Part shown: positions 22,989 through 40,783 of the stretch, piece after piece
How positions within the stretch are numbered: position 1 is the first letter of the stretch
Layout of the letters: every line of letters starts with the position of its first letter
DNA from: Rubripirellula lacrimiformis
Lineage (GTDB): Bacteria; Planctomycetota; Planctomycetia; Pirellulales; Pirellulaceae
Length of the DNA: 64,000 nucleotides
NCBI RefSeq assembly: GCF_007741535.1
Contig: NZ_CP036525.1
Span: forward strand, 7,006,001 to 7,070,000
Reading direction: 5' to 3'
The notes under the pieces: generated by a model
What the model was told of the DNA's origin: nothing
The model's input: the letters and a program-made list of their open reading frames with translations, nothing else
Databases searched by the model: none
Translations under genes and position numbers: made by a program

Positions 22989-23062
22989 GGGCGATTAGCT
23001 CAGTTGGTTAGAGCGCCACGTTGACATCGTGGAGGTCACAGATTCGAGTTCTGTATCGCCCA
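22989..23062 (+). tRNA. tRNA-Val (anticodon GAC)
   Basis: Acceptor arms GGGCGAT (22989-22995) and ATCGCCC (23055-23061) pair, with discriminator A. The anticodon stem CCACG/CGTGG encloses GAC. T-loop GATTCGAGTTC is normal. It is the intact copy, with its 3' half serving as the left attachment site of the following integrative element. Confidence 0.95.
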
Positions 23063-23063
23063 T
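23016..23063 (+). repeat. attL (tRNA-Val 3' half)
   Basis: 48 bp from the anticodon stem (CCACGTTGACATCGTGG) to CGCCCAT, identical to 40736-40783. Typical tRNA crossover site for tyrosine integrases. Confidence 0.93.
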
Positions 23064-23085
23064 TTTTTGTTTTTTCCCGTGCTGG

Positions 23086-23163
23086 AACGCTTAAAAGCGT
23101 TACCGCCATTGTTGGCGAGCGGCTCATGTTTGGATCATTTCGGAGTAGGCAACTACTCCGAAA
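23086..23163 (+). promoter_or_regulatory. Two hairpins in the integrase leader
   Basis: AACGCTT-AA-AAGCGTT (23086-23101) is a 7-bp-arm palindrome. TTTCGGAGTA (23138-23147) pairs perfectly with TACTCCGAAA (23154-23163) across a 6-nt loop. The second ends 6 nt before the AGGAG ribosome site of the integrase. They may be operators, arm-type integrase sites or an RNA attenuator; which one cannot be told from sequence. Confidence 0.5.
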
Positions 23164-23181
23164 CCAGCAGGAGTGCCGACA

Positions 23182-24297
23182 ATGGCGAGACCCAGAAGCC
23201 CACAACCGGCTTACCAGTACCACGTCAGCGGCCAGGCCAAAGTCAGGCTAGGCTACGACGATTTCTATCTTGGGAAGCACGGTAGCCCAGAAAGTTACGC
23301 CCGCTATTACGCGTTGCTTTCCGAATACAACGCAAATGGCAAAGTTGCCCCAGTCCGCGGCAAAGACGTGATGCGTCAGGCTGGCGACCAGATTCTCGTG
23401 AAGCACGTCACGGCCGATTTTCGCGCCAACGTCCTGCCCGGCTATGCCGAAAACGGGCAAATGACCAACCGGTACACCAATCTTTGCCTGTTGCTGGAAA
23501 AAAGACTCGGCGAAACCAATGCCGAAGAATTTGGCCCACGATTGCTGGAAAGCCTGCGAGAGGTTTTTCTGACGAAAGGGATCGGGGAAAAGGGGCGAGC
23601 AAATTGCCGTCGGCAATCCAACGAATTGACCCGCAACGTCATCCAAATTTTCCGGCACGGCGTGGCCAGGGAATTGATTGCACCAGAGCGGCTGGTCGCA
23701 CTTTCGGCATTGCCTCCGCTAAAAATCTCCGCCGGCCAAGATAACGACGCCCGCGAAGAGGTCCCACTTGATGACGTTCGTGCCACGATTCCTTTCCTGA
23801 CGGCGACGGCAGCGGCGATGGTCAGGATCCAACTGGCCACCGCCATGCGGCCGAGCGAATTGTTTCGGATGACGCCGGCAATGATCGACCGCAGCGGCAA
23901 AGTTTGGGTCTACAAGCCAACGACCCACAAAACGGCCCACCATGACCGGAAAAAGAAGCGGGAGAAAAAGGTGCCGATTCTGGGCGAGGCATTGAAGGCA
24001 CTAACGCCCTATCTGTTCGGGGACGCCGACGAAGTTTGTTTCCTGACGACGAAGGGCACGCCGTGGAACAAGGACTCTTACCGGATCGCGGTGGGGCGAG
24101 CCGCCAAAGCCGCCAAGGTCAAACACTGGACGCCCTACCAACTTCGTCACGCCGCACTTCAAGCGGTGCGAGATGCGAAGGGCCCCGAAGCTGCGCAAGC
24201 CTTGGCAGGGCACAGCCGGCTCGCAACGACTGAACTGTACGCGTCAGCATCCGAGGCCAAAGCCATCGAAGCGGCCAAGGTTGCCCCGAGGCTGTAA
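23182..24297 (+). CDS. Tyrosine-type site-specific integrase
   Basis: 371 aa from ATG 23182, chosen because AGGAG sits 8 nt upstream (a GTG at 23173 is in frame). The N-terminal SAM-like DNA-binding region spans residues ~15-160. The catalytic domain has Arg in TAMRPSELFRM, Lys in WVYKPTTHKT, YQLRHAALQ (second Arg; the usual first His of HxLRH is Tyr here), and GHSRLATTELYA with the nucleophile Tyr. It catalyses recombination between the tRNA-Val site and the element. Position next to attL is standard. Confidence 0.9.
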   Translation: MARPRSPQPAYQYHVSGQAKVRLGYDDFYLGKHGSPESYARYYALLSEYNANGKVAPVRGKDVMRQAGDQILVKHVTADFRANVLPGYAENGQMTNRYTNLCLLLEKRLGETNAEEFGPRLLESLREVFLTKGIGEKGRANCRRQSNELTRNVIQIFRHGVARELIAPERLVALSALPPLKISAGQDNDAREEVPLDDVRATIPFLTATAAAMVRIQLATAMRPSELFRMTPAMIDRSGKVWVYKPTTHKTAHHDRKKKREKKVPILGEALKALTPYLFGDADEVCFLTTKGTPWNKDSYRIAVGRAAKAAKVKHWTPYQLRHAALQAVRDAKGPEAAQALAGHSRLATTELYASASEAKAIEAAKVAPRL

Positions 24298-24409
24298 AAT
24301 CCAATCTACGTCGTCAGCGGATTGATCCCCGCGCGTCGTTCGTCGTCATCGGTCCCATAGCCGATGGCGACGGACGGCAACGACATCTTTCAACTATGGG
24401 ATTCAATCG

Positions 24410-25039
24410 ATGAAATTTGTGAACCTAACGCACTCTGCCGGCCAGTTTTTCAGCGACCTAAAGCAGATGGCCGATGACGTGGTTCTGTACTGGGACATCC
24501 CTGCCGACGAAGCATCTAGTCCCGGTTGGCTGGAGAGCATGACAAGCAGCATCAAGGAAGTGTTTGATTCTGCTATTCGGTTCAATAGCGACAATCGCTT
24601 TATCGACGAGCAGATGCTACGTGATGCACGCAACAACTGCATGACGCTGGTTCACATCTTGCACCAAAACGCAGGCATGGCCCGCGGCGACTATGGGCGT
24701 GACGTTCCTAACGCAGTGGCAGGTTTGCGTAGATTTTCTGCCGAAGTTGATGCGGTCGCAAACGCTCTCGATGAGGGCAAGCAAGTGCAATCGCCGAAGC
24801 CTGGAAAATTGGGCCGCGAAGCACCCCCGATTATTCCGCCGGAGTATCAACTGCAATTAAGCCAGACCGACGCCGCCAGGAAGTATTACAGGCATCTTGA
24901 ATTGAGCGATCGGCAGAAGCTAAGGAATTTCAGTAAAGAGATCGAAGATGGAAACGTGGCTTGCGAGAAAGTCAGCGACCGCCTGTTCATCTTCGATGCC
25001 CGTCAACTGAATCCGCTAACAGACATAGCGGACAAATAG
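24410..25039 (+). CDS. Element protein of unknown function (209 aa)
   Basis: Acidic, mostly helical protein; no family recognised. HSAGQFFSDLKQMADDVVLYW at the N-terminus and a C-terminal YRHLELSDRQKLRNFSKEIED helix are the most structured parts. It follows the integrase on the same strand with a 112-bp gap. Good coding statistics by eye, with no competing frame. Confidence 0.6.
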   Translation: MKFVNLTHSAGQFFSDLKQMADDVVLYWDIPADEASSPGWLESMTSSIKEVFDSAIRFNSDNRFIDEQMLRDARNNCMTLVHILHQNAGMARGDYGRDVPNAVAGLRRFSAEVDAVANALDEGKQVQSPKPGKLGREAPPIIPPEYQLQLSQTDAARKYYRHLELSDRQKLRNFSKEIEDGNVACEKVSDRLFIFDARQLNPLTDIADK

Positions 25040-25122
25040 CGGACATAGCGGATTCACGCCTGAAAACCCCCTCATAGTTACTCGCGTTGCACAAAAGGCA
25101 CGCTCCAACTATGAGGTTTTTT

Positions 25123-25362
25123 ATGTCCGCGACTGTATCGACAACGTCCCGAATTCTGACCGAGGACGTTCTGACACTCCAAGATGCCCGCCGCGAATTG
25201 GCAAAAGCCACTGGGCGGAGACCAGACAAGAGTACTTGTTATCGTTGGTGCCTCAAAGGCGTAGGCGGAACCAAGCTGGAACACATCCGGCTCGGCGACC
25301 GCATTCTGACCAGCCGTCAAGCGTTGACCCGCTTCATCGAAGCCCGCACCGCCAAATCCTAA
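25123..25362 (+). CDS. DUF1580 protein, probable excisionase/HTH
   Basis: 79 aa from ATG 25123, preceded by GAGG at a 6-nt spacing (frame open from 25087). TLQDARRELAKATGRRPDKS followed by CYRWCLKGVGG and LEHIRLGDRILTSRQALTRF matches the planctomycete DUF1580 pattern. This looks like a winged-helix MerR/excisionase fold: a helix-turn-helix then a beta wing reading 'R.G..I.TS..AL.RF'. Likely controls excision or early transcription of the element. Confidence 0.7.
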   Translation: MSATVSTTSRILTEDVLTLQDARRELAKATGRRPDKSTCYRWCLKGVGGTKLEHIRLGDRILTSRQALTRFIEARTAKS

Positions 25363-25475
25363 ATGACAGAACGCCAGCGCCGGAAATCCGGTGGCTGGCG
25401 TTTTGCGTTTCTCATTTTTCGTGTCGCGAATGACCGGGCAGGTTAGGCGACAACACACAATCAAGGACTACATGG

Positions 25476-25814
25476 ATGGTAACACCAAGCACACCAGCGG
25501 CAAGTCTGAATGCCGCACTTTTCGATCCAGACGACTTACAGCTAGCCGAGACATTGCGACCAGCCAGCAATTCGCGGGAAAGTGCCGGTCGGCAATTTGA
25601 AGAGCTGGCAATGATCGAGCCAAGGTTGCGGAACATCGCCGCCGATGCGTCGTCATCGCGGTGGTCTGTCGCCCGATACGAAGGACTGAAACGCCGCGCC
25701 GCCCGGCTTGTCGGCTGGCACGCGGCCAATCCACTGCTTGCGTCATCGCGATGCTACGAGGTGGTGGTGTGGCACTTGGCCGGACTGCTGCGAAGCCGGA
25801 GGCGGGCCAAATGA
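25476..25814 (+). CDS. Small element protein (112 aa), unknown
   Basis: Begins MVTPSTPAASLNAALFDPDD, then a helical basic part (SRWSVARYEGLKRRAARLVGW) and ends in RSRRRAK. No family recognised. Its stop overlaps the next start by ATGA, placing it at the head of the replication operon. Confidence 0.55.
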   Translation: MVTPSTPAASLNAALFDPDDLQLAETLRPASNSRESAGRQFEELAMIEPRLRNIAADASSSRWSVARYEGLKRRAARLVGWHAANPLLASSRCYEVVVWHLAGLLRSRRRAK

Positions 25815-26203
25815 GGACACCAAAGACGATAGCAGTCGATGCCGACGAAATCCTGCGACGGCGTGACTCGATGGCTGAATTTCTTGCCGAAGAAATGGCG
25901 GTAGATCGAATGATCCGCGGCAAACAACAGCGGGCGCAACTGCGCGAAAGGTTGTCGGTGAGCATGACGCCCAGGGAAACCGATGCCGCGATGAGGGTCC
26001 GGACCAGATGCATGGACTTGCTGCTATTCGCAGTTGCTTACAACAGCCGCGTTTGGGTTGAGGGCGGCCGCGTTGCAATCGCTGGGACCAACTCCGCCAA
26101 GTACCTACGAGCGCTAGAGCCCCTCAACCAGCGATTCAAAGGACAGTCACGAAGCCTCGCGGCGTACTACTTCGACAAGGTTTTTCCAGAGGTGAAACAG
26201 TGA
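25811..26203 (+). CDS. Small element protein (130 aa), unknown
   Basis: ATG at 25811 overlaps the previous stop (ATGA). Helical charged N-terminus (DADEILRRRDSMAEFLAEEM), then RVRTRCMDLLLFAVAYNSRVW and a C-terminal SLAAYYFDKVFPEVKQ. No family recognised. Its TGA overlaps the GTG of the next gene, so all three are coupled. Confidence 0.6.
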   Translation: MRTPKTIAVDADEILRRRDSMAEFLAEEMAVDRMIRGKQQRAQLRERLSVSMTPRETDAAMRVRTRCMDLLLFAVAYNSRVWVEGGRVAIAGTNSAKYLRALEPLNQRFKGQSRSLAAYYFDKVFPEVKQ

Positions 26204-27138
26204 CGGACCACTACCCAAAACGATCGTCACATTGGGCGCACAAACTGACCCGGCTGCTTTTCAAAAGCTGCGCCGCCCAGGACATCGGCCACCATGCCGT
26301 TTGTCTTGTGACCCACATTGCGCACACCGAAGATGCAGCCCGGTATCAGGGGCCAGTGCGATTCTGGAACTCGCAACTGATGGAAGTGCTTGGATTCAAC
26401 AGCCCCAAGCAGTTGACCGCGGCAAGGGACAAAGCCATCCAAGCTGGCTGGCTTGTCTACCATCGCGTCAACGATCGATCGGTTGGCAACTACTGGACCG
26501 AGATGCCAGATTCTGTGTCCCGATTCTCGGATGAGCCAATCGAGGAATCGTGTTCCGATAACGGAACGGGAAAGCATTCCGAAAACGGAAAGCATTCCGA
26601 TTCCGAAAACGGAAAGCATTCCGATTCCGGAAAGGGTATGCATTCCGAATCCGGAACGCATGGCGGAACACATAGCGGAATGCATTGCGGAACACATAGC
26701 GGAATGCATTGCGGAACACATAGCGGAAAGCCTTCTTACCCTACTCCTAACCCTACCCCTAATCCTAAGAATGCGGCGAAAAAGTCGCCGGACTACTCTG
26801 ACGCTTTTGAAGAGTTCTGGAAGGCATACCCCGCCAATTCAAAAGGGCGGAAGCGTGGCAAGTCTGAAACCTTCAAGTTGTGGCGAGCGGTTCCGGTTGA
26901 CGATCATGACTCTTTGCTTGTAGCAGCCAGGAACTACGCCGCGGACGAAGGGGGATCCGAGTACGTCAGGGATCCAGAGCGATTCTTGAAGAAGGATTGG
27001 TGGAGGGATCTGGTCGGACCGCCTGAGCGACAACCGAGCGGTGACGAAGCATCGTTGCCATCGTCGCCGGTTTCGAGCATCGCTGACCGTCGTCGCCAAA
27101 TCGAGGCAGAACGGACGGGGGTGACCAGCCATGCGTGA
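26200..27138 (+). CDS. Winged-helix replication (primosome/O-like) protein with intragenic repeats
   Basis: 312 aa from GTG 26200 (GTGA overlap). Residues ~5-90 form a winged-helix domain (WAHKLTRLLFKSCAAQDIG ... FNSPKQLTAARDKAIQAGWL). Residues ~120-190 are a four-residue repeat of the GTHSGMHC type, then PTPNPTPNP. The C-terminal FEEFWKAYPANSKGRKRGK and YVRDPERFLKKDWWRDL blocks are typical of phage replisome-organiser/helicase-loader proteins. dnaB overlaps immediately downstream. It probably binds the origin and recruits the helicase, like lambda O plus P. Confidence 0.75.
   Translation: MTDHYPKRSSHWAHKLTRLLFKSCAAQDIGHHAVCLVTHIAHTEDAARYQGPVRFWNSQLMEVLGFNSPKQLTAARDKAIQAGWLVYHRVNDRSVGNYWTEMPDSVSRFSDEPIEESCSDNGTGKHSENGKHSDSENGKHSDSGKGMHSESGTHGGTHSGMHCGTHSGMHCGTHSGKPSYPTPNPTPNPKNAAKKSPDYSDAFEEFWKAYPANSKGRKRGKSETFKLWRAVPVDDHDSLLVAARNYAADEGGSEYVRDPERFLKKDWWRDLVGPPERQPSGDEASLPSSPVSSIADRRRQIEAERTGVTSHA
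26569..26736 (+). repeat. Iteron-like array inside the replication gene
   Basis: GGAAAGCATTCC at 26569, 26587 and 26611, GGTATGCATTCC at 26635, a degenerate GGAACGCATGGC at 26653, then alternating GGAACACATAGC / GGAATGCATTGC at 26665, 26677, 26689, 26701 and 26713, and GGAAAGCCTTCT at 26725. All starts are multiples of 6 bp apart (18, 24, 24, 18, then 12). Right after comes pyrimidine-rich CCTACTCCTAACCC-type DNA. This resembles lambda-type origin iterons lying inside an initiator gene. Confidence 0.7.
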
Positions 27139-28507
27139 AATTGACCACATGGATGCCGCCCGTGGCTTGCTGAATGCCATGCTGCTTGACCCGAGATCGA
27201 CTCCGGTTGTGGAAGGCATCGTTTCCTCGCGGGACTTTCCGGCGGACGAAGCATCGTCAACATCGATTACCGGCCGGCTGTTTTCGCTGCTGATCGAAAT
27301 GCATCGATCCGGCGAAAGCATCCGAGACGGAAGGCTTGTGATATCGCGGGTCCGCGCGGCCGGCATGATCGAATCGTTTGGTGGGCAATCGCAATTTGAG
27401 CGTGACTTTCTGGATCCGCTATCAACCGAGAACGCAACGCACTACGCCAGAAGCCTTCGGAATTGTTCCATCCGCAAACGGCTCCAACGGTTAGCGAGGG
27501 ACTTTTCACGCAAGGCGGACTCCGACAACCAGGACTCCGGCGAGCTAGCCGAGTGGATGCGATACGAATTGGCGGCGATCGAGTCGCAGGCGTCAGACAA
27601 ATCACACATCCATCGCATTGGTGACGGATGCAACGAACTGCTTGCGGCAATCGATGAAACCCTAGCCGGCGGACAATCGCCGGGACTGCACACCGGCCTA
27701 TACCACCTCGATGACAACTATGACGGATTGCACCCCGGCCGGTTGTACGTGTTCGCTGGCCGGCCAGGCGGTGGAAAGAGTTCGGCGGCGCAGCAAGTGG
27801 GCGAAAACATTGTTCACGGCGTTGGCGAATCAATCGCAGACCGTCACCGAGGTGCCCTGTTTGTTTCGCTCGAAATGGGAATCGACGAAGTGACGGCCAG
27901 GTTCATCGCTCGCCAATCGGGAATCAATGGCAAGCACATCCTGAGCCATGCGGTCACCGAAGCAGAACGCCGGCAAATGCAAACGGTCGCCGAAAAGTCG
28001 CAATCGGTTCCGTTCTTCGTGAGCGTTCCGACTGGACGCCAAGCGACCGCCGAAGCGATCTGCGCCGAAGCGCGGGTGATGAAGGCTACCGAAGACATCG
28101 CCGTTGTGATCGTTGACTATCTGCAAATCGTTGAGGACAGCACGCCGAACCAACGCGAGATCGACAAGACCACCCGAGCAACGCGAGCGTTCAAGCAACT
28201 GTCGCGAGAGTTAAACATCCCGGTTGTGATCCTGTCGCAACTGAACCGAGCCGGTGAATCCGACAGCAAGAATGAGAAGCCGCGCGAACCCCGATTGAGT
28301 GATCTGCGGTCCAGCGGAAGCATCGAACAGGACGCCGATGCCGTCATATTCTTGCATCACGAAGGCGGCAGGAATGTCCGGATGATTGTCGCCAAGATGC
28401 GTGGCGGCGAGCGATCTGAAAACATGTTTACGTTCGACGGGCCAACGTGTTCGTTTCACAAGCCAGAGCCAGCGCCGCACGAAGAGTTTGCGGAGTGGTC
28501 GCCATGA
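27131..28507 (+). CDS. dnaB: Replicative DNA helicase, DnaB-type
   Basis: 458-aa RecA-fold hexameric helicase. Short N-domain (HMDAARGLLNAMLLDP), linker helices, then Walker A GRPGGGKSS, SLEMGIDEVTARFIA, Walker B VVIVDYLQIVED, VILSQLNRA, and EQDADAVIFLHHEG with C-terminal arginine-finger region. Start overlaps the upstream primosome gene. It gives the element its own fork helicase, consistent with autonomous or theta replication after excision. Confidence 0.93.
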   Translation: MREIDHMDAARGLLNAMLLDPRSTPVVEGIVSSRDFPADEASSTSITGRLFSLLIEMHRSGESIRDGRLVISRVRAAGMIESFGGQSQFERDFLDPLSTENATHYARSLRNCSIRKRLQRLARDFSRKADSDNQDSGELAEWMRYELAAIESQASDKSHIHRIGDGCNELLAAIDETLAGGQSPGLHTGLYHLDDNYDGLHPGRLYVFAGRPGGGKSSAAQQVGENIVHGVGESIADRHRGALFVSLEMGIDEVTARFIARQSGINGKHILSHAVTEAERRQMQTVAEKSQSVPFFVSVPTGRQATAEAICAEARVMKATEDIAVVIVDYLQIVEDSTPNQREIDKTTRATRAFKQLSRELNIPVVILSQLNRAGESDSKNEKPREPRLSDLRSSGSIEQDADAVIFLHHEGGRNVRMIVAKMRGGERSENMFTFDGPTCSFHKPEPAPHEEFAEWSP

Positions 28508-28562: not shown

Positions 28563-28763
28563 ATGACCAGAGACTGGAAGACAGCGCCGATGGTGATCAT
28601 CGAAGCAGCCGCGTGCCCGGTCTGCTTTGCATTGAAGCCGATCATCGTCCGGACCGAACAGGGTGGCGATGGCAGTTCAAGCCGTCGATGCGTTTGCCGA
28701 GAATGTTCGGCGCACTTTCTTTTGGTGATCGAGCCACCGGTTCCAAATTCTGGAAGTGTTTAG
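28563..28763 (+). CDS. Small zinc-ribbon protein (66 aa)
   Basis: ATG 28563 follows GGAAGG by 6-7 nt. Two Cys pairs, CPVC (residues ~19-22) and CVCREC (~45-50), form a probable zinc ribbon. No wider family recognised. It continues the helicase operon and could be a DNA-binding accessory factor. Confidence 0.6.
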   Translation: MTRDWKTAPMVIIEAAACPVCFALKPIIVRTEQGGDGSSSRRCVCRECSAHFLLVIEPPVPNSGSV

Positions 28764-28786: not shown

Positions 28787-29203
28787 ATGTTCAAACTTGC
28801 AAAGGCGAAGGCGATGATTCAAATGATGCGAAAAATGATCTGCGGCGTCGGTCCCGATGTTGTCACCAAGTCGTCAGCGATGGCGGGTGCATCGGCGGAA
28901 TCGCGACCGTCGTTGTACTTGCCTAAGTCCAAGATTCCCGCCAACTCTGATACCGGCGTCGGCGTCGATGGCTCTTGCTGGGCACCGTGGCGCGAAAGCC
29001 GAAACGGCGAAATGTGGTTCCAGCGGATCAGCAACATCGAAGCCGGCCAAACCATGCCCGCGATCAAAGCGTTTGACTCGGACGACGACGCCGTTGATTG
29101 GGATGAGTTCGACCGAGCTTTCGAGCAAAAGAAGCTTTGGGTCAATCGATCGATGAACTACCCAAACATTGACGAAGAATCCGCCGAGGGATGCGACCAA
29201 TGA
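28787..29203 (+). CDS. Element protein of unknown function (138 aa)
   Basis: Starts with a basic helix rich in Met and Lys (MFKLAKAKAMIQMMRKMICG) and ends in acidic segments (FDSDDDAVDWDEFDRAFEQ). Upstream codons are open, but ATG 28787 is the first good start after the zinc-ribbon gene. Overlaps the next gene by ATGA. No family recognised. Confidence 0.5.
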   Translation: MFKLAKAKAMIQMMRKMICGVGPDVVTKSSAMAGASAESRPSLYLPKSKIPANSDTGVGVDGSCWAPWRESRNGEMWFQRISNIEAGQTMPAIKAFDSDDDAVDWDEFDRAFEQKKLWVNRSMNYPNIDEESAEGCDQ

Positions 29204-29937
29204 TCGCGACCAGCCTTTTGGACGATTGCCGACGCTTGGCGTTTACCGTCGCGCCCGAACTAGAAGCGAATCCGCTTTACGTCGTCGATGCCGAAACGCT
29301 GGCCGGTACACCGAACCCGGCGGATTGTCTTGGTTTTGCACGACGTGGTAACTGGATGGACTACGAAACGATTGACCGGATCGGTGACGCATGGACCGGC
29401 CCAGGCCCATTGATCGCATTGGACGGTGAAGTGATCCGAGAATCCCACGGCGAGAACTTTACCGCGGCAGTCACCGGCACCATGGTTCACGAACTGGCAC
29501 ACATACTGCCGGCCATCGAGGCGCGCGAACTAAGCCATCGACAGCCCGGTGACAAGATGGATTGCGATGCGGTCCGACAGAATCAGGCCGTTTCACTTTC
29601 TCGCAGCATCGCGAAGCCCGCAGCCGAACCAGGATCTTGCATCGATCCCCACAACGATCAGTTCATTCGGCGAACGTGTCACGTATACAGCCGGGCCGTT
29701 GCCCATGGTTGGGACGTGTCAATTGATGGGCTATTCGGTGGCTCGCTCTGGTTTGCTTGTCAGCCGGCCCACTGGATCACGTCGCTACTGCCCGAGCTGC
29801 ATTCGATGCGAACAGCCAGCTTTGCCGAGATCGAAACAGCAACGCCACCAGAAGCGTTCACGAAGCTATGGCAGAGCAGTTTGGATCTTTACCGTTCGTT
29901 TCAAGATCCAAGAGGGGACATCGATGAGCAGATTTGA
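29200..29937 (+). CDS. HExxH zinc metallopeptidase-like protein
   Basis: 245 aa from ATG 29200 (ATGA overlap). MVHELAHILP near residues 95-104 is an HExxH zinc site. A later CIDPHNDQFIRRTCHVYSRA block has His followed by xxxF, as in the HGxxF third-ligand block of SprT-like/minigluzincin peptidases. No signal peptide, so it acts in the cytosol or virion. Overlaps the coiled-coil gene downstream. Might process a structural or regulatory protein of the element; target unknown. Confidence 0.65.
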   Translation: MIATSLLDDCRRLAFTVAPELEANPLYVVDAETLAGTPNPADCLGFARRGNWMDYETIDRIGDAWTGPGPLIALDGEVIRESHGENFTAAVTGTMVHELAHILPAIEARELSHRQPGDKMDCDAVRQNQAVSLSRSIAKPAAEPGSCIDPHNDQFIRRTCHVYSRAVAHGWDVSIDGLFGGSLWFACQPAHWITSLLPELHSMRTASFAEIETATPPEAFTKLWQSSLDLYRSFQDPRGDIDEQI

Positions 29938-30289
29938 ATTGTTGGCGGCAATCGAGCAGCTGGATGCCGAGCTAGAAGCAGCCGACGAACATCACGCAAA
30001 GGTCACGGCAGGGTTGCAGTTTGAACTGTTCTGCATTGATCGGCAGCAAGACGAGACGCTTGCCGACCAACGTCACCAAGTCACAACCAAGATCGAAGCC
30101 GCCAACGCCCAGCTTGAAGCGGCGGCCAAGTCGATCAGCCGACAACGGGCGATTGCCGAAAAGCAGATTCAACAACTGAACGCGGACCGCTCGCCATGCG
30201 GCGTTAGAGACGTTTTTCCCCGTCAATCTAACGCCGCTGGCGGGCAACTTCCCACCACCACAGAAAAGGCCTACCAATGTCAAACGTGA
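29924..30289 (+). CDS. Coiled-coil element protein (121 aa)
   Basis: ATG 29924 after AGAGGGG; overlaps the metallopeptidase end by 14 nt. Residues ~1-88 form an almost continuous helical heptad region (IEQLDAELEAADEHHAKV ... KIEAANAQLEAAAKSISRQ). The tail is short and polar. No family recognised. Position ahead of the tape-measure gene recalls tail-assembly chaperones, but no sequence support. Confidence 0.55.
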   Translation: MSRFELLAAIEQLDAELEAADEHHAKVTAGLQFELFCIDRQQDETLADQRHQVTTKIEAANAQLEAAAKSISRQRAIAEKQIQQLNADRSPCGVRDVFPRQSNAAGGQLPTTTEKAYQCQT

Positions 30290-30981
30290 TTGACCAACTC
30301 GCTTCCACACTTCGCGACCGGAAAGAATCGGGCCGGATCAAATACCGTGAATTGGTCCGATCGATTGCGGATGGTGAACAGTCGCCGGATCCCGAAGTCG
30401 TCGAAGCCGTGTTGCGTGATGCCGATAAATCGATCGACGATCTGGCATCCGATGAAAGCCGTTGCCGACGACGCAATCAGCATCGCGCAGCTATCGCCGA
30501 AATCCCCGAGGTACAAAGGCAACTGGCAGAAGCCAACGCAGCCATTGCTGAGGCTGACGCAATTCTCGAAGCCGCTAAGCAAGCGAGACACATCGCGGTG
30601 CTTCCACAAGCCGCGAAGATCAGGGAATGCAATGACGCGCTGATGGTATCAACAGCGGCTAAGTCGGAACTTCGCAATACGATCTGGCCCGAGGACAAGG
30701 CGGAGTTGGAACGGCTCAACAGTCGCTGCGAGAGGGCTCACAGCGCGATGCGTGAAGCATCCGCACACTTGGCAGCGGTCAAGTCGAGAACCACCGTCGA
30801 TCGATCGGCCTTTGTGAAAGACTACGAATGGACCAAGGAATCGGACCAGGCTACCCGAATCAAGACAGCAACGCCCGAGCAACTGCAAGCGGCACAGGAT
30901 CGCTACGACGAAGCCAACGCCGTCTTGACTGATGCGATGGCCGAGCATGACGCATTCCTCGCGGAGGCTCTGGCAAGATGA
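30277..30981 (+). CDS. Coiled-coil element protein (234 aa)
   Basis: Starts 13 nt inside the preceding gene. Long helical segments rich in Ala/Glu/Lys (EVQRQLAEANAAIAEADAIL, RYDEANAVLTDAMAEHDAFL). No catalytic motif. Unknown function; organised with the tape-measure gene, which follows after 174 bp. Confidence 0.6.
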   Translation: MSNVIDQLASTLRDRKESGRIKYRELVRSIADGEQSPDPEVVEAVLRDADKSIDDLASDESRCRRRNQHRAAIAEIPEVQRQLAEANAAIAEADAILEAAKQARHIAVLPQAAKIRECNDALMVSTAAKSELRNTIWPEDKAELERLNSRCERAHSAMREASAHLAAVKSRTTVDRSAFVKDYEWTKESDQATRIKTATPEQLQAAQDRYDEANAVLTDAMAEHDAFLAEALAR

Positions 30982-34100: not shown

Positions 34101-34209
34101 CATGGGCCGACAAGAGGACGAGAAGACGAAGCTGACCAGGATCATCGCAGGCAACAGTACCGAGCAAGTCAAACTTGCCAGAAAGAAAAACACCGCGAGG
34201 TTTGGCTGA
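31156..34209 (+). CDS. Phage tail tape measure protein
   Basis: 1017 aa. Residues ~45-210 match the TP901-type tape-measure core: SASEMQETVGKFEVVFGEAA, LSALAVDLGSFNNM, LMSAITGEGQVMKKYGVIL. Residues ~260-600 are very hydrophobic and contain drifting AWSASAAF-type repeats. Residues ~690-1000 are charged coiled coil. In siphophages this protein fixes tail length and helps DNA entry. Here it stands without recognisable tail, capsid or terminase genes. AAGGGA precedes the ATG. Its stop overlaps the next start. Confidence 0.9.
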   Translation: MSQSKVKAGEGYVEIGLRNRIAQGAAGVQADLEKLSKNATALGAKIAAGSAALLAFPIKSASEMQETVGKFEVVFGEAAGSVREWSDTTAKAMGQSKQSMADMLASMQDLLVPMGVMPQTAAGMSKTLSALAVDLGSFNNMGTAQVFENLMSAITGEGQVMKKYGVILTETATKQELFNMGLDPDTTDNAAKAKARLNIIMRGTTAAQGDAIRTASSFENQMKALWAAVVDASGAIGGAFLDDTAALVTMARDAVQLIADFVTKNQDLVRTIGLATIAVGGLGVGLVATGFAASAMVSTLGTAMTAIKVAAGGATIAWAGVGLLFTAVTLKARITAAVVTAGWKVASVAVSAAWTVAMGVIGTAFKAVTAAAMVTAVATPWVAGAAAIAVAYFGLDVIMSALATGVAAVWSASAGTVTAAWSASAAFLMPIAAAISGAWSASAAFIATAWGGLSAVFAASGLAASTSALLATAAWSAFGAISAILAVEQSASAAIVAIAWTTASFVSSTAWSGFMALLTAALTPASLMAGAALLVSGSWTVAAGLVSLAWGTAWAVISGPLLPFIAAAGAAIAVVGTLAAGIGVLAVKSLNLGGAFAKAKDMIYGIVSVVTDTFDAIKAAISSGDYAAAAQALWAGVRLAFWEGVSGTMDAFSWLWREAKLTAARFFTALLVNTQRVMSAVVTSITSPFKAAKEIQSAMLALGASATSFDVDGRANAAREELKAIRDRLTAENESTEAKKKSQAEAKKEADAASELFDTKIKALEAEILALEKGETAADRKRLADEGLNAIQIKQIEAMKAKKKALEDEETAQKKATKAAEDAANKASDKRADAVFKRADQMSKDGMNPADIFRKVIAQINSDEQAGRINGGDAADARDRARDNLDDRTEAIRQEGKALAESLRTPAENLRAKMADIEKFKSAGVFGDNMADRAKAKAREEFAEEEARNRKRAKKVELGFEKEQKRTGPSGAFSAAAAGVIGMGRQEDEKTKLTRIIAGNSTEQVKLARKKNTARFG

Positions 34210-34463
34210 TGGACGACCCAAGTTTGAACGCTGCTTTTTGCTACGAATCGCAGGGTGAATGTTTCAGGATCCAGCGTGATTTGTTCCTTGAGAAGATCGA
34301 TCAGGCAGGCGACCGAGAAGGGTTTACCGAAACCGATTTGCGATACTTTGCGTTGCTGGATGAATGCGCCGACCTGCTAGGGCGGTTGCACCCGGCTTTC
34401 ATGACCCTATCTGCGCTGACACAACTGGCATCTGATGAAGCAGACGACGCAAACGGTGTGTGA
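34209..34463 (+). CDS. Small element protein (84 aa), unknown
   Basis: Start overlaps the tape-measure stop (GCTGATGG). Acidic helical protein (ETDLRYFALLDECADLLGRL). In phages the gene after the tape measure is often a minor tail protein, but no resemblance is visible. Confidence 0.55.
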   Translation: MDDPSLNAAFCYESQGECFRIQRDLFLEKIDQAGDREGFTETDLRYFALLDECADLLGRLHPAFMTLSALTQLASDEADDANGV

Positions 34464-34851
34464 AGCAGGGAACGAACCACCGCGACGGCGATCGGCCAGA
34501 GCCAAAGCACTGATTCAATCCCATGGATGGCCCCAGGATCAAGCGTGTGAGGCGATGGGGCTGGATCCGGCAAAGTATCTGCCCAACGTCGCGGCGTTCA
34601 CCATGCCCGACCACATGCCCACACGGGCCGAAATCGAAGCGATAACTTCGGCGATGCGTTCCGGCGAACTGGTAATCAGCCAGCAGTCGGCGCGACGGTG
34701 GGAAAAGTACCGCGCCGAACAAGAACGCATGGCACAGCCCGAGGCCGAACAGCGGGATGCCTATGAGCTTGCCGGCCGGATCGCAGAGGACGATTGCCCG
34801 GTGCCTTCGTGGTTGTACTCGGCTGGTCCGATCGGTGACGAAGCGGATTAA
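34435..34851 (+). CDS. Element protein of unknown function (138 aa)
   Basis: Overlaps the preceding gene by 29 nt. RRRSARAKALIQSHGWPQDQ and DPAKYLPNVAAFTMPDHMPT suggest a small helical DNA- or protein-binding unit; the 'R..RA..LI...GW...A...MGLDP' pattern resembles a short HTH. No family recognised. Confidence 0.55.
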   Translation: MKQTTQTVCEAGNEPPRRRSARAKALIQSHGWPQDQACEAMGLDPAKYLPNVAAFTMPDHMPTRAEIEAITSAMRSGELVISQQSARRWEKYRAEQERMAQPEAEQRDAYELAGRIAEDDCPVPSWLYSAGPIGDEAD

Positions 34852-36371: not shown

Positions 36372-36824
36372 ATGGAAGCCAGCATCACCACCTATCTAAA
36401 AGCCCAGTCCTACGGGGACCGTGGCTACTACCGCGAAGCCGACGATCCCACACCCGATGAGATCCGGCAGCGTTGCCGCGAAATTCACCGGATGAAGAGC
36501 GCCGAATACAACCGGCAAGATCAGGTTCGCCAATCTCGACAGCGGAAGATTGTTTCGGCGATCCAACGCTCCGGTGCGATCAATGGTCGGGCCGCATCTG
36601 ATCTGATTGGAACCAGCCAGGCAACGGCATCGAAGCTGCTATTTGAGCTCGCAAGCGTGGGCACTCTCGTCCGCATTAGCCGGTCCCGCTACGGACTGCC
36701 GGACACCGAGCCGACTATCGCGACAGGACCAGACTTGGCATCACCGGACGCCATTCTGCGCCGATTCCGCGATCGCGCACGTTCGCCGCGTTTCAATCGC
36801 TTGCCGGCCGATCTGGTCGCGTAG
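36372..36824 (+). CDS. Winged-helix DNA-binding protein (150 aa)
   Basis: The C-terminal half reads QRKIVSAIQRSGAINGRAAS, LIGTSQATASKLLFELASVG and TLVRISRSRYGLPD, a helix-turn-helix with a basic wing ending in Y-G-L. The N-terminal half is Tyr/Arg-rich and helical. Probably a transcription or replication regulator of the element. Confidence 0.6.
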   Translation: MEASITTYLKAQSYGDRGYYREADDPTPDEIRQRCREIHRMKSAEYNRQDQVRQSRQRKIVSAIQRSGAINGRAASDLIGTSQATASKLLFELASVGTLVRISRSRYGLPDTEPTIATGPDLASPDAILRRFRDRARSPRFNRLPADLVA

Positions 36825-36860: not shown

Positions 36861-37319
36861 GTGATGATTGTGCAACTTCACGATTTGCGAGCCGAACGAC
36901 GAGAACGGCTGAACCAGAACCGGCGGGCCAGAGAAGAGGCAGCAATGCCCAAGACGCCGCTACAAGAAATGATCCGGCTGGTGGCCGAGAAGCAGGCGAC
37001 CAAGGCCAACGTGGGCGTCGAAACGCTCGAACAACTGGACGCGGTTCTAACCTCCACGGAACGAATGGCGCTAGATTGGCCGGCCGATGCCAGTGCCATC
37101 GCTACGGGACTCCTGCGGTCGCTGCTACGGCTCAACTTGGTCAAGGTGACTGGCAAGCCGAACTCGGCACCCGAACATTCACGCGTGGCAATGAAGCTGT
37201 TTCAAAAGAACGTCATCGATAAGCCGACGATGCGACGGATCACGGCATCATTGAAGACCGATAACCCGGTCCACATTCTCGACACTTGCCGCGCGCTGCT
37301 AGTACTGCTGGCGAACTGA
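36861..37319 (+). CDS. Element protein of unknown function (152 aa)
   Basis: Basic N-terminus (LRAERRERLNQNRRAREEAA), then a compact helical part (PADASAIATGLLRSLLRLNL ... DTCRALLVLLAN). No family recognised. Sits between the HTH gene and the second iteron gene. Confidence 0.55.
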   Translation: MMIVQLHDLRAERRERLNQNRRAREEAAMPKTPLQEMIRLVAEKQATKANVGVETLEQLDAVLTSTERMALDWPADASAIATGLLRSLLRLNLVKVTGKPNSAPEHSRVAMKLFQKNVIDKPTMRRITASLKTDNPVHILDTCRALLVLLAN

Positions 37320-37425
37320 TCCGAGAGGCTTTGCCGGTTGGCCGTTGCTTGGAATTGAGACTCCCGAGCGATTGGCCTGCCGGCTTTTCTTTTGTCGCCA
37401 TCGACCCGACCACCGAGCCGAACCA

Positions 37426-38376
37426 ATGAAACAACAAGACCTATTCACCGATCTGCCGCGCGGCGAGCAGCTGGCCGCACTGCGCCGGATCGAGTTTGCC
37501 ACCTATTCGATCGGGAAGAACAAAGTATCCCCCAAGATGCAGAAGGCCGTTCTTCGCGCGATCGATGATCACGAAGGGCAGCGGGAGTGCTTCGCCACCC
37601 AAGAGACGATAGCCGCCGAGATCGGTTGCAGCGTATCGACGGTGGTACGGGCCATCGCCGCGTTGGTCGATCAAGACTTAATCACGAAGGAACGCCCCAA
37701 CGGATTCAGCCCCAACCATCATCGCATTGTGTGGACATCGGTTTTCATGAAAACGAAGCAGGGAACGGCACCCGAGACCCGGAAAGCTTCCAGCGGGAAA
37801 ACTTCCGGGGTGGAACGTATCCAAGTCGAAGATGGAACACTTCCAACTCGGACACGGATCACTTCCAACTCGGACGTGGAAGTCTTCCAACGGAAACGCC
37901 CAATAAACGACCAGTTAACCGACCAACCAACCGCCAAGTGGCAGGCGGTGGCGGCGACGATGAGGCGATGGGGTTTGGCGTCAGCCGTCCAAGCGTGCAA
38001 GGCAGCCCAGGACCGGGGGCTTGCGCTCGAGTATGTGGCCGAACTGTTCCGAGAAGCCGGCGGCGATCGATTGCCCGAGCGATGGGAACCGGGACAGCTG
38101 GCGAACTGGTTGACCGGCCGGACACCGCCACCGTTTGATGAGGCCGAAGCAGACCGCCGCCGCGAAGCGAGGGACCGGGCAAAGGGCATCGAAGCCGACC
38201 GAATCCGGGAGAGCGTCAGGCGGGACGGTGAGAGCCGCGGTGCGCCCGAGTGGGCTATCGCTGGGGTTTCGTTCAAACGGTTGCGAGAGGCTGGGTTGGA
38301 GCGGCTGACTACCGACGCAGAAATTCAGAATGCTCTTCTACTGGACCGGCATGAACGCACTCGAATGCCCGGATAA
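37426..38376 (+). CDS. Second winged-helix replication-type protein with intragenic repeats
   Basis: 316 aa from ATG 37426. Residues ~45-110 are a winged-helix HTH (ATQETIAAEIGCSVSTVVRA, ALVDQDLITKER, NHHRIVWTSV), the layout of plasmid/phage Rep and replisome-organiser N-domains. Residues ~118-155 are encoded by an iteron-like array. The C-terminal half is helical and ends with a conserved-looking SFKRLREAGLERLTTDAEIQ. It has the same plan as the 26200 gene (HTH, repeat segment, helical C-domain), though with little direct identity. Likely an origin-binding protein. Confidence 0.65.
   Translation: MKQQDLFTDLPRGEQLAALRRIEFATYSIGKNKVSPKMQKAVLRAIDDHEGQRECFATQETIAAEIGCSVSTVVRAIAALVDQDLITKERPNGFSPNHHRIVWTSVFMKTKQGTAPETRKASSGKTSGVERIQVEDGTLPTRTRITSNSDVEVFQRKRPINDQLTDQPTAKWQAVAATMRRWGLASAVQACKAAQDRGLALEYVAELFREAGGDRLPERWEPGQLANWLTGRTPPPFDEAEADRRREARDRAKGIEADRIRESVRRDGESRGAPEWAIAGVSFKRLREAGLERLTTDAEIQNALLLDRHERTRMPG
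37781..37888 (+). repeat. Second iteron-like array (GGAA-N3-TTCC)
   Basis: Eleven-bp near-palindromes: GGAAAGCTTCC 37781, GGAAAACTTCC 37796, GGAACGTATCC 37812, GGAACACTTCC 37834, GGATCACTTCC 37856 and GGAAGTCTTCC 37878. The last four are exactly 22 bp apart (two helical turns). Also seen as the direct repeat ACTTCCAACTCGGAC. The core resembles the array at 26569-26736. Confidence 0.7.
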
Positions 38377-38626
38377 AGACATCGCGTGAATTTCACGGCT
38401 CTGTTGCAGTTTTCCCCGTGCACCGTTACTCAGCCCCCCCCCCCGGTTATTGCCGCCCGCGACTAATTGCTGGGAAAATAGCAACGATAGAGCCGGAGAA
38501 ACTACAAAGGCATCAAGGTAGGCGACGCAAGAAGCACTTACCCAAAACTCAGTTAAAGAGGCTGATCGCCGAATTTAAAAAGCAGGGGTGATGTGTCGCT
38601 ACGGGTGAGAAGAACGACAAAGCTCC

Positions 38627-38851
38627 CTATCTGCATTGCAGAAACGCCGTCAGAAATGCCGTCAGAGACTTCCATCCGGTCGACTTCTGTTTCGCTTGCC
38701 TAACGCGAATCGAGTAAGGCTTTGTCTGGACAAGCGCATCGGAAAAAATTCTTATCGTCGAATGAAGATTGTCTGACTCGATTCGGATTTCGCGTTGAGA
38801 AGCCATTTCGCCGGTTTCGCGTTCGTCAATATCGGGGGGTGAGATCGTCAT
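38627..38851 (-). CDS. Small protein (74 aa), related to the gene at 40069
   Basis: Minus-strand frame with NLHSTIRIFSDALVQTKPYS, which aligns with NLTTIRSFSDQLVRTLPASL of the 75-aa protein at 40069-40296. The shared block is the only support that both are real. Function unknown. Confidence 0.4.
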   Translation of the reverse strand: MTISPPDIDERETGEMASQREIRIESDNLHSTIRIFSDALVQTKPYSIRVRQAKQKSTGWKSLTAFLTAFLQCR

Positions 38852-39082
38852 TGTTCTATTATCGGAACGTTTTCAAGTCAACGTAGAGCATAGTCTGGGA
38901 GGCCGCGCAACTCGGCCTATTCGCGCTAGTTTTTCGAAATGGCGTGCATTTTGGCTGGAAACAAGCAGAAGAAATAAATCGCACACATTGTTGCAAGCTA
39001 CAGGACAGTTTATAAAACCGCCAATCGGGGGCTGCCGTCGGCGCAGCTTAGGCAGTTAGGCAGCGCTCATGGGCATTCACAT

Positions 39083-40033
39083 TTGACCAACGCACCAAGT
39101 ACGCTCGCCGAGTACCAAACCTACGCCGCAAACTGTCGATCGAAGTCGCAGCGACTCCAGAATCGCTGGACAATGATCGTCTCAATCGGAAACTCGCTGT
39201 TTGCGGCGGCTGGGGTTATTGCACATCTCTTCCTAACCGACACACAGGGACGAGAATTCTTCCAATTACTTTCTCTGGTGTTAGTGTCCGTGTGTTCACT
39301 TGCAGTGGCCGTCGGTGTGTATGTTCGAACGCAGAAACGCGAGCGTTATGCAAGGGCATTTGAGTTAGTCCATCTTGCGGTTCACGCAATTAGAGACGAG
39401 TTGCAGCGGACACTTCCGGACGGGGACGATGAGGACGCGAGGAACCAATCCATCAAGGATTGCGTAGAAGCTGTCTTGAACTGCTTGTCAATTGGGTTCT
39501 CGATGATCACTGGTGGAAGATGCCGAGCCACGTTAAAAACGTTAGAAGTCGACGTGCCGCAGGAGCTGAAGGGAAAGACGCTGGACGATGGGGATCTCGC
39601 CAAATACGGGAAAGTCGTGACATTCTGTCGTGACCCGATCACAAGCCAGCTGATTGCTGAGAACGACCTGGGGAGCTCAATTGATCTCCAAGAAAACGAT
39701 CGTTTTTTCGATCTGTACAAGTCTTCGCGAACGCGTTTTTGGATCAACAATGACGTAAAATTGGACAATTCGCGAAGAACCAAACCGGAAAAGTACGGTA
39801 GTTGCCTGCCGTACTCATCCCAGATGATTTGGCCTATTCGGCACACCCGAAAGGGAAAAGCAGATGCAAATCATGCGAAAAGAGTTACTCTAAAAGAGCA
39901 AGATCTAATCGGTTTCTTGATTGTCGACTCGCCCGAAAAGAACTGCTTCAACAAGCTTTTTGATTTTGATGTTGGTGCGATAGTTGCTGACGCTCTATAC
40001 ATCTACTTAGACAGTGTGCAACCGAAAAAGTGA
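39083..40033 (+). CDS. Two-span membrane protein with GAF-like C-terminal domain
   Basis: 316 aa from a TTG at 39083. Residues ~30-80 hold two transmembrane helices (TMIVSIGNSLFAAAGVIAHL and LLSLVLVSVCSLAVAVGVYV). The C-terminal half (150-310) has the GAF-like pattern: FFDLYKSSRTRFWINNDV, YGSCLPYSSQMIWPIR, then DLIGFLIVDSPEKNCF and a final helix. It resembles membrane-anchored sensors of unknown signal. Base composition is more AT-rich than the tail operon. Located at the right end, the usual place for cargo or defence genes. Confidence 0.6.
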   Translation: MTNAPSTLAEYQTYAANCRSKSQRLQNRWTMIVSIGNSLFAAAGVIAHLFLTDTQGREFFQLLSLVLVSVCSLAVAVGVYVRTQKRERYARAFELVHLAVHAIRDELQRTLPDGDDEDARNQSIKDCVEAVLNCLSIGFSMITGGRCRATLKTLEVDVPQELKGKTLDDGDLAKYGKVVTFCRDPITSQLIAENDLGSSIDLQENDRFFDLYKSSRTRFWINNDVKLDNSRRTKPEKYGSCLPYSSQMIWPIRHTRKGKADANHAKRVTLKEQDLIGFLIVDSPEKNCFNKLFDFDVGAIVADALYIYLDSVQPKK

Positions 40034-40068
40034 ACGAACCGAAAACAGACATATGAGGTGTTTGAGGA

Positions 40069-40296
40069 ATGTGTTCAAAAAGAAAAGCGGCGAAAGACAG
40101 GAATCGAGAGCGAATTCGCCTGTCTCGTTTAAAAGCTGCTCGAGCCGTTGGTGATGAAACGCATGTGGTCGTTATCCGATCAACAGCCGGGGACGATCAA
40201 TCAGTTGAGAATTTGACGACAATTCGGTCGTTTTCTGACCAACTGGTCCGAACGCTCCCCGCAAGTTTGCGGAGAAGACTGGCGCAGCACGCCTGA
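40069..40296 (+). CDS. Small basic protein (75 aa)
   Basis: Very basic N-terminus (MCSKRKAAKDRNRERIRLSR) and the NLTTIRSFSDQLVRT block shared with the minus-strand protein at 38627-38851. AGG/AGGA motifs precede the ATG. It follows the membrane protein by 36 bp, perhaps as its partner. Confidence 0.45.
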   Translation: MCSKRKAAKDRNRERIRLSRLKAARAVGDETHVVVIRSTAGDDQSVENLTTIRSFSDQLVRTLPASLRRRLAQHA

Positions 40297-40735
40297 CCTG
40301 CAGCGTTTTCAAGTCCACAAGCCTCCTTGGTGTTGCGGCAAAGCAGTAATGCCGAGACCCCAAACGGAAATAGCACGCACGTTCTCGATTGCATTCCAGT
40401 TGCTTTGGGGATGGCTTCGTTCGTTACAGTAGGCGTCCTGCTTTTAGTGCTTGAATGTTTGACGGGTAATGCCGATGTGCATCGGGATTCTGGATTCGGT
40501 CAATCGCGGTCTGACCAGAAACGCGACGGGGTTGACCAATTGGATTGGCGTGAGCGAAGCCGGCGGGCGCTGGCGTGACAGCCCTGTCTCACCTACGCGA
40601 CTACTCCATAACGGCACCTTTTCTTGCATCGCTAGTGGCATTTTGCTAAGCTGTCAGACGACACCAAACATGCAGTTTTCCCCGTAAATCGCGGGAGAAA
40701 ACGAATCAGAGGTAGCGGAAACTCGAACGGCCGGA
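40297..40735. other. Right end of the element, no supported gene
   Basis: 439 bp between the last gene and attR. Short frames overlap in several phases without start signals. Probably arm sites for the integrase. Confidence 0.4.
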
Positions 40736-40783
40736 CCACGTTGACATCGTGGAGGTCACAGATTCGAGTTCTGTATCGCCCAT
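40736..40783 (+). repeat. attR (partial tRNA-Val)
   Basis: Exact 48-bp copy of the tRNA-Val anticodon-stem-to-3'-end segment. The preceding bases (GGCCGGA) do not continue the tRNA, so this copy is not a functional tRNA. Confidence 0.93.

What the first reader, a model, noticed from the sequence alone, without database searches (positions are those of the whole stretch)
23016..40783. tRNA-Val element with its own helicase and a tape measure, but no recognisable capsid, portal or terminase
The ends are defined by an exact 48-bp tRNA repeat, and the gene set (integrase, DUF1580, two initiator-like proteins, DnaB, HExxH peptidase, 1017-aa tape measure) is coherent and coupled by ATGA overlaps. 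A complete siphophage would show terminase, portal and capsid genes; only the tape measure is recognisable. It may be a satellite that supplies its own tail-length ruler to a helper, a prophage that lost its structural block, or a class whose structural proteins I cannot recognise.
Basis: partly seen in the sequence, partly recalled or inferred. Interest (0 to 1): 0.75.

Follow-up and report, generated by a model that had tools for sequence, protein, structure and literature searches.

The report
Phage parasite carrying its own tail ruler
A 17.7-kb stretch of DNA inserted at a tRNA gene in a planctomycete bacterium looks like a parasite of phages: it can integrate and copy itself but its only recognised virion gene is the protein that sets phage tail length, and elements with similar core genes occur in related bacteria.

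Summary
The element (23016-40783) is bounded by an exact 48-bp repeat of the tRNA-Val 3' end. It encodes an integrase, a DUF1580/HTH protein, two initiator-like proteins, a DnaB helicase, an HExxH protein and a genuine 1017-aa tape measure protein (TMP). No terminase, portal or capsid was found.

It is not a one-off remnant. The HExxH protein was found in 28 of 396 genomes of the order (this one included), usually next to a ~235-aa coiled-coil protein. Eight tRNA-flanked elements with it (9.9-17.8 kb) could be delimited. Five of the 8 carry a TMP, of three sequence groups; four of these five share the order helicase - HExxH - coiled coil - TMP. One of the 8 carries a large terminase subunit. 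None has a full head module by my searches. In a sister class the core sits inside the portal gene of prophages.

The window TMP is 50% identical over its full length to that of a virus (L136) whose other head and tail genes match a prophage in this same genome.

Best reading: a phage satellite (PICI/PLE-like) that borrows head, terminase and tail tube and supplies its own TMP, as Vibrio cholerae PLEs were shown to do in 2026. Mobilisation, helper and TMP incorporation are inferred.

The parts
22989..23062 (+). tRNA-Val(GAC), the attachment gene
   Evidence: ARAGORN; infC - tRNA-Val with a 98% identical 48-bp site in 3 of 3 same-genus genomes inspected
23016..23063 (+). att repeat, left copy (inside tRNA-Val)
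   Evidence: exact 48/48 repeat
40736..40783 (+). att repeat, right copy
   Evidence: exact 48/48 repeat
23173..24297 (+). tyrosine integrase
   Evidence: PF00589 1.5e-18; 36% over 436 aa to the integrase of the L136 phage
24410..25039 (+). unknown 209-aa protein
   Evidence: best family hit 0.023
25123..25362 (+). DUF1580 / HTH_17-like small protein, excisionase-like by position (inferred)
   Evidence: PF07618 2.3e-13
25811..26203 (+). unknown 130-aa protein, overlaps next gene
26200..27138 (+). replication initiator-like protein 1
   Evidence: phrog_270 6.5e-16
27131..28507 (+). DnaB-like replicative helicase
   Evidence: PF03796 1.8e-54, phrog_19 2.5e-64
28563..28763 (+). 66-aa Cys-rich, Zn-ribbon-like protein; similar gene beside HExxH in G134
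   Evidence: tblastn to G112, 31%, 3e-6; pattern match in window and G134 only
28787..29203 (+). unknown 138-aa protein
   Evidence: gene
29191..29937 (+). HExxH zincin-like protein, marker of the element family
   Evidence: 19-member alignment with invariant H100 E101 H104 H154 and others; no Pfam family significant; AF2 pLDDT 83, best PDB match a zincin-like protease at E 0.1
29924..30289 (+). 121-aa coiled-coil protein, weak match to the core coiled-coil family
   Evidence: HMM E=4e-6
30277..30981 (+). 234-aa all-helical coiled-coil core protein
   Evidence: 18-member alignment, AF2 all helix, pLDDT 89, pTM 0.50
31156..34209 (+). tape measure protein, 1017 aa
34209..34463 (+). 84-aa protein overlapping the TMP stop codon
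   Evidence: no family
34435..34851 (+). unknown small protein
   Evidence: no family at E<0.05
36372..36824 (+). 150-aa winged-helix-like regulator (weak)
   Evidence: HTH_DeoR 0.036
36861..37319 (+). unknown 152-aa protein
   Evidence: no family
37426..38376 (+). replication initiator-like protein 2 (HTH_36)
   Evidence: PF13730 3.9e-9, phrog_270 2.4e-9
39083..40033 (+). 316-aa protein of unknown function, hydrophobic N-terminal stretches by eye; possible cargo
   Evidence: only weak hits; no PADLOC match at 1e-5

Best explanation
A phage satellite (phage-inducible-island type) integrated at tRNA-Val. It integrates and excises with its own tyrosine recombinase and replicates with its own initiator(s) and DnaB helicase. 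It has no head, portal or terminase gene that I could recognise and would be packaged in a helper phage's particle. It supplies one recognised virion protein, the tape measure, which would replace the helper's TMP so that chimeric tails are built. The likely helper type is a siphophage-type phage with the tail module of the prophage at 8.2 Mb in the same chromosome and of virus L136. Shown: the ends, the gene content, recurrence of the core without a full head module, and TMP homology. Inferred: mobilisation, helper identity, incorporation of the TMP, and the role of the HExxH/coiled-coil pair.
For: (1) tRNA att and complete int/replication set. (2) The HExxH protein recurs in other tRNA-flanked elements: att repeats of 22-57 bp define G112, G134, G234, G165, G175a, G175b, G123. 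With the window, 5 of 8 carry a TMP (window, G112, G134, G234, G175a); the first four share helicase - HExxH - coiled coil - TMP. (3) PHROGs scans of 11 of 13 called G112 proteins, 8 of 16 of G134 and 4 of G234 gave no structural family but the TMPs. (4) The core is tied to phages: terminase small subunit beside the HExxH gene in G410 (2.5e-18), terminase large subunit in the G175b element (5.2e-24), insertion in a phage portal gene in a sister class. (5) The window TMP shares residues 1-38 (68%) and 534-1016 (45%) with the TMP of the co-resident prophage, which has terminase, portal and capsid genes. L136 carries a TMP 50% identical over the whole window TMP inside a module whose portal is 67% and next-gene protein 67% identical to that prophage. 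(6) Of 59 relatives of this TMP with at least 7 kb upstream, 53 have a recognised structural gene nearby; 55 of the 59 come from a virus collection, so this rate is biased upwards.
Against: No terminase small subunit, capsid gene or packaging signal was recognised in the window. No exact word of 19 or more bases is shared with the resident prophage region; the few 15-18-mers look like chance or TMP homology, so no shared cos site is visible. The window's HExxH protein had no match in phage or plasmid records and its own closest group none in viral contigs. TMP is absent from 3 of 8 delimited elements and recognised in only 6 of the 34 places with an HExxH gene (many are on short contigs), so it is not essential to the family. 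G175a has part of a tail module and a head-protease-like gene, and islands without the HExxH gene (G058, G053, G097) have TMP plus a capsid or protease gene, which could be read as stages of prophage erosion. Tail genes are poorly recognised by the library used.
Confidence: 0.7

Rival explanations
1. The TMP is an anti-phage weapon, not a virion part: it competes with or poisons tail assembly of infecting phages, and the element spreads by other means.
For: No packaging gene in the window. The TMP keeps both ends of the resident prophage TMP but not its middle, as a competitor might. Some related loci lie next to defence genes. Tail assembly is a known defence target (PMC11364771, passages seen).
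Against: In PLEs the satellite TMP is built into virions and its deletion cuts transduction (PMC12987554, passages seen). Related elements carry terminase genes, which point to packaging.
Confidence: 0.15
2. A defective prophage that lost its head and most tail genes by deletion and is decaying.
For: Integrase 36% and TMP 50% identical to those of the phage L136. G175a has a partial tail module. Islands G058, G053 and G097 have partial structural sets. G236 shows broken core genes.
Against: All main window genes are open and several are stop/start coupled. The same core is seen with other TMPs in elements of 10-11 kb. L136's record has no HExxH match (a record that may be partial cannot prove absence).
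Confidence: 0.12
3. An autonomous phage or element whose capsid proteins are beyond recognition among the small unknown genes.
For: About 5 kb at 34.4-40.3 kb is of unknown function. The conserved HExxH and coiled-coil proteins have no known family.
Against: The 10-kb relatives leave almost no room for a terminase and capsid. No such protein was recognised in scans of 20 window ORFs, 11 of 13 G112 and 8 of 16 G134 called proteins, by a library that did recognise the resident prophage's head genes.
Confidence: 0.05
4. A tRNA-linked integrative island that only happened to pick up a TMP gene, with no phage lifestyle.
For: TMP is variable cargo: 3 of 8 delimited elements lack it.
Against: TMPs of three sequence groups (window/G112; G234/G175a/G097b; G134) lie downstream of the coiled-coil gene, at most two small genes away. 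Related cores are linked to TerS, TerL and portal insertion.
Confidence: 0.08

Closest known systems
PLE satellites of Vibrio cholerae (PLE1, PLE4, PLE11), PMC12987554 (passages seen)
   Same: Satellite that encodes its own TMP; PLEs put it into chimeric tails made with helper proteins.
   Different: PLE TMPs come with a tail assembly chaperone and sometimes a hub protein, for a contractile-tailed phage. In the window only the TMP is recognised. No PLE sequence was compared.
cf-PICIs with putative tmp genes (Extended Data Fig. 10 of PMC12987554, legend seen)
   Same: Island with integrase and a putative TMP.
   Different: cf-PICIs encode their own capsid (name; packaging genes recalled). The window has none; the G058 island (capsid protein + TMP, no match to the HExxH family) is nearer to this type.
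PICIs in general (passage in PMC11364771), and PICMIs (PMC10803314, search listing only)
   Same: Size, integrase, replication module; TerS in one relative. tRNA att and small HTH as recalled for such islands.
   Different: TMP as the only recognised virion gene; HExxH and coiled-coil core; planctomycete hosts.

Membership tests
PICI-like phage satellites (features recalled, size also from a passage in PMC11364771) | 10-15 kb (to ~18 kb) island integrated at a specific site by its own integrase | tested here: met
   17.7 kb, tRNA-Val, 48-bp repeat, integrase; seven relatives 9.9-16.5 kb
PICI-like phage satellites (features recalled, size also from a passage in PMC11364771) | own replication initiator/primase | tested here: met
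   initiator-like proteins and DnaB
PICI-like phage satellites (features recalled, size also from a passage in PMC11364771) | lacks most structural genes | tested here: met
   only TMP found; head genes well covered, tail genes poorly (control); lysis genes not searched for specially
PICI-like phage satellites (features recalled, size also from a passage in PMC11364771) | packaging redirection gene (TerS or other) | tested here: not met
   none recognised in the window; TerS in relative G410 and TerL in G175b
PICI-like phage satellites (features recalled, size also from a passage in PMC11364771) | induction and transfer by a helper phage | not testable with these tools
   needs culture
PLE chimeric-tail satellites | own TMP, homologous to phage TMPs | tested here: met
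PLE chimeric-tail satellites | own tail assembly chaperone next to the TMP | tested here: inconclusive
   none recognised, but PHROGs also missed the small tail genes just before the TMP of the resident prophage
PLE chimeric-tail satellites | shared PLE gene content | not tested
   no PLE sequence was compared
Complete siphophage prophage | terminase, portal, capsid | tested here: not met
   PHROGs finds all three in the 8.2-Mb prophage

The most novel reading that the evidence does not exclude
The elements are a large, undescribed group of planctomycete phage parasites defined by a replication gene plus a zincin-like protease and a coiled-coil protein. The pair is a helper-virion takeover module. 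Individual members swap in different virion genes (tape measure, small or large terminase subunit, part of a tail module) to control different helpers, and one branch parasitises phages by inserting into their portal gene, some with defence cargo.
Probability: 0.3. Interest if true: 0.82.

Novelty: new variant of a known kind. Interest (0 to 1): 0.64.

Why it matters
Satellite-encoded tape measures were shown to work only in 2026, in the PLE family (PMC12987554, passages seen). A separate family without a head module, in another phylum, with three TMP sequence groups downstream of the same core genes, would show that tail takeover is a repeated strategy. It also gives a conserved marker (the HExxH protein) for finding such elements in planctomycetes; a search for papers with both 'planctomycet' and 'phage satellite' found none. 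The co-resident prophage offers a concrete helper candidate to test.

Tried and rejected
Considered and rejected: that the 1017-aa protein is not a TMP (rejected); that only one element is concerned (rejected); that a shared cos or packaging sequence links the element to the resident prophage (exact 15-mers against 60 kb around it: only chance-like words and the start of the TMP gene). G226 (541 aa), G139 (499 aa) and G286z (769 aa), which look TMP-like by eye, had no PHROG match and are NOT counted as TMPs.

Led nowhere: Foldseek of the HExxH model (no match below E 0.1); Pfam for 19 members (nothing significant); window TMP alone in viral contigs (none confirmed, whereas the 6-row alignment found 97, best 80 kept); the window's HExxH protein in phage and plasmid records (none); its three-row group in viral contigs (none). 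phrog_2 (a terminase family as recalled; the call names no function) matched in 10 of 12 genomes, at no place inside the elements, but it missed the G175b terminase and that of the resident prophage, so it is a weak control.

Limits: gene calls are from my own simple codon-bias caller; starts may be wrong. Local HMMs include some of the sequences they detect, so those rows are not independent; the capsid HMM was built on protease-capsid fusions and so also rings at the G175a protease-like gene (2e-20). All 40 HExxH places were fetched; the listings were cut, so two places (G031c in part, G114c) were seen only partly there. 34 of 40 had a called gene matching the HExxH HMM, 29 of these 34 also the coiled-coil HMM, 6 of the 34 a TMP HMM. 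The other six are fragments, contig ends or doubtful. Many lie on short contigs, so absence of genes there means little. The G179 places hold TerS genes (for G179a) but only partial HExxH matches, so I do not count them as core plus TerS. The organism of the window was not established.
Full report
WHAT IS THERE. The window lies at 7006001-7070000 of a single 8.54-Mb chromosome. The element is bounded by an exact 48-bp repeat, 23016-23063 and 40736-40783. The left copy is the 3' part of tRNA-Val(GAC). The main genes lie on the plus strand and several overlap by stop/start. In three same-genus genomes inspected (G001, G011, G018) the infC - tRNA-Val neighbourhood is kept, with the 48-bp site at 98% identity. 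In G018 a second 46-bp copy lies about 6.2 kb away, and in G001 and G018 another gene abuts the tRNA, so the site seems to be used by other insertions; in G011 I saw no second copy within the 8.5 kb taken. None of the 20 same-genus genomes listed has a match to this TMP.

GENES. Integrase, DUF1580/HTH, two initiator-like proteins, DnaB. The 1017-aa protein matches 366 phage records at E <= 1e-3, none over 80% of its length; 18 of the 20 listed are annotated as tape measure and 2 as hypothetical. PHROGs scans of 20 ORFs found no head, portal or terminase family. Control: the same library recognised terminase, portal and capsid in the resident prophage but none of 7 further proteins.

THE SAME CORE ELSEWHERE. 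A second TMP in the genome, 39% identical, lies at 8.2 Mb in a prophage with terminase, portal and capsid genes. Of 147 relatives, 10 (the window genome included) have a TMP match; several of these are ordinary prophages or tail gene clusters. In G112 the TMP sits in a 10.5-kb tRNA-Arg element (45-bp repeat) with a helicase, an HExxH protein and a coiled-coil protein in the window's order and no other virion gene recognised. A two-row HExxH profile matched in 28 of 396 genomes of the order, 40 places, at E <= 0.01. A 19-row profile matched in 2 of 392 genomes sampled across the phylum, the window genome and one in another family of the class; the first look scored only 7 candidates per genome, so this may undercount.

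I fetched all 40 places and read their gene calls (two were cut in the listing). 34 have a called gene matching the HExxH HMM, 29 of these also the coiled-coil HMM, and 6 of the 34 a TMP HMM. Eight elements could be delimited by tRNA repeats: window 17.8 kb, G112 10.5, G134 10.1, G234 11.2, G165 10.0, G175a 16.5, G175b 11.0, G123 9.9. TMP: window, G112 (phrog_28 2.5e-11), G134 (2.5e-21), G234 (8.4e-29) and G175a (40% over 263 aa to the TMP of a G031 tail gene cluster): 5 of 8. In the first four the order is helicase or primase - HExxH - coiled coil - TMP. G175a instead has other virion-like genes around the pair: a protein of the family that follows the TMP in phages (4.3e-33), a head-protease-like (3.4e-5) and a neck-like protein (0.0013). 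G175b has a terminase large subunit (5.2e-24) and its coiled-coil gene is not matched by the HMM. G165 and G123 have neither TMP nor terminase by my HMMs; apart from one G165 protein they were not scanned with PHROGs. Outside the delimited set, G097b has TMP and an HExxH/coiled-coil fusion on a 16.8-kb contig (4.1e-40), and G410 has a terminase small subunit beside the HExxH gene. G058 is a different 16.1-kb tRNA-Arg island with a 932-aa primase-like protein (by eye), a capsid protein (8.6e-51) and a 1085-aa TMP, but no match to the HExxH family.

THE HExxH AND COILED-COIL PAIR. Nineteen HExxH proteins share H100, E101, H104, H154, R160, H164, R168 and E202. No Pfam family is significant. AlphaFold gives a fairly confident fold (pLDDT 83) whose best PDB neighbours include small zincins, at non-significant E-values. 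The partner is all helical (pLDDT 89, pTM 0.50). I read them as a protease with a scaffold-like partner; that is inference.

WHY THIS TMP FITS A HELPER. Against the co-resident prophage TMP, window residues 1-38 are 68% and 534-1016 are 45% identical, while the middle has no BLAST match; residues 56-265 are 51% identical to the TMP of G114a and 58-271 are 50% identical to that of G112. In virus L136 (36-kb IMG/VR contig, 19 kb held) a TMP 50% identical over all 1017 residues sits in a module that is otherwise of the resident prophage's kind: terminase 55%, portal 67%, capsid 42%, the protein after the TMP 67%. A TMP of the window type therefore occurs in nature inside a tail module of the resident prophage's type. 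L136's record has no HExxH match; of 7 records tested 1 had a weak match. Of 90 TMP loci fetched have at least 7 kb upstream; 53 of these carry a gene matched by my structural HMMs. Of the 6 others, 5 have by eye the gene order of ordinary phages; L127 (G114a) is an exception. 55 of the 59 come from a virus collection, which favours loci with virus genes, so the rarity of lone TMPs is suggested, not measured.

MECHANISM. On helper infection or induction the element excises, replicates with its initiator and DnaB, and is packaged by the helper. Its own TMP, whose ends resemble those of helper-type TMPs, is built into the tail. How packaging is redirected is unknown, as no TerS or cos was found. 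An alternative use of the TMP as an assembly poison cannot be excluded. All of this paragraph is inference.

LITERATURE. PMC12987554 (passages seen): PLE11 encodes TMP, a putative chaperone and a hub protein; its TMP and hub protein were found in its virions, and deletion of tmp cut transduction by roughly 99.9%; Extended Data Fig. 10 (legend) reports putative tmp genes in PLE-like Vibrio elements and some cf-PICIs. So the idea is known and the window is a new variant. A search for 'planctomycet' with 'phage satellite' found no paper. One for Planctomycetes, prophage and tape measure listed 5 papers, none by title about this; none was opened. A search on satellites integrated in a portal gene found none.

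A SISTER CLASS. Ten IMG/VR contigs carry the HExxH gene. In all ten the 5' part of a phage portal gene lies upstream, and in eight the terminase. In L220, and in genomes G031 and G057, the other part of the portal gene lies beyond a recombinase gene, so the element is inside the portal gene; in the other nine contigs the second part was not seen. Around the G057 element lie terminase, capsid, TMP and the next tail gene. Among HExxH loci of the window's family, G031c lies next to type I restriction genes, G024 next to Cas3, G063a next to Cas3 and Cas8, and G000d next to LmuA/ThsA-like genes; only G031c of these was seen in a portal gene. This supports the reading that the core belongs to parasites of phages.

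Noticed in passing
L220 (portal pieces 10-951 and 10845-11321), L083 (G031), L090/L230/L231 (G057, 6551457-6590494), L216-L225: Elements with the HExxH/coiled-coil core, a helicase or primase, variable cargo and (where that end is held) a large serine-recombinase-like gene lie inside the portal gene of prophages; portal 5' part in 10 of 10 IMG/VR contigs, both parts seen in L220, G031 and G057.
   Followed up: partly
L075 (4.88 Mb), L074 (8.13 Mb) of the window genome: Two further HExxH/coiled-coil loci in the same chromosome, no portal of the tested kind within the 56 kb taken around each; one lies next to LmuA/ThsA-like and methyltransferase-like genes.
   Followed up: partly
L018/L019, G058:C6:553495-569611: A 16.1-kb tRNA-Arg island with capsid protein and TMP but no terminase or portal recognised by my HMMs, nearer to capsid-forming islands.
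   Followed up: partly
window 40876-41199 (-): ORF just beyond the right att shares 25-27 residues at 78-80% with the gene that abuts tRNA-Val in G001 and G018, perhaps the end of another integrase, suggesting a used hotspot.
   Followed up: no
window 26553-26734: Short direct repeats (12-nt steps in part) in the middle of initiator-like gene 1, possibly replication iterons.
   Followed up: no
window 39083-40033: 316-aa protein at the right end, with hydrophobic stretches at its N-terminus by eye, could be defence cargo; no PADLOC match at 1e-5.
   Followed up: no
L095 (G097:C127): An element with the HExxH domain fused to the coiled-coil domain, a TMP and an 846-aa virion structural-like protein.
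   Followed up: partly
L099 and L106 (G179): Contigs with a terminase small subunit near partial HExxH-profile matches; similar to G410 but the HExxH gene was not called.
   Followed up: partly
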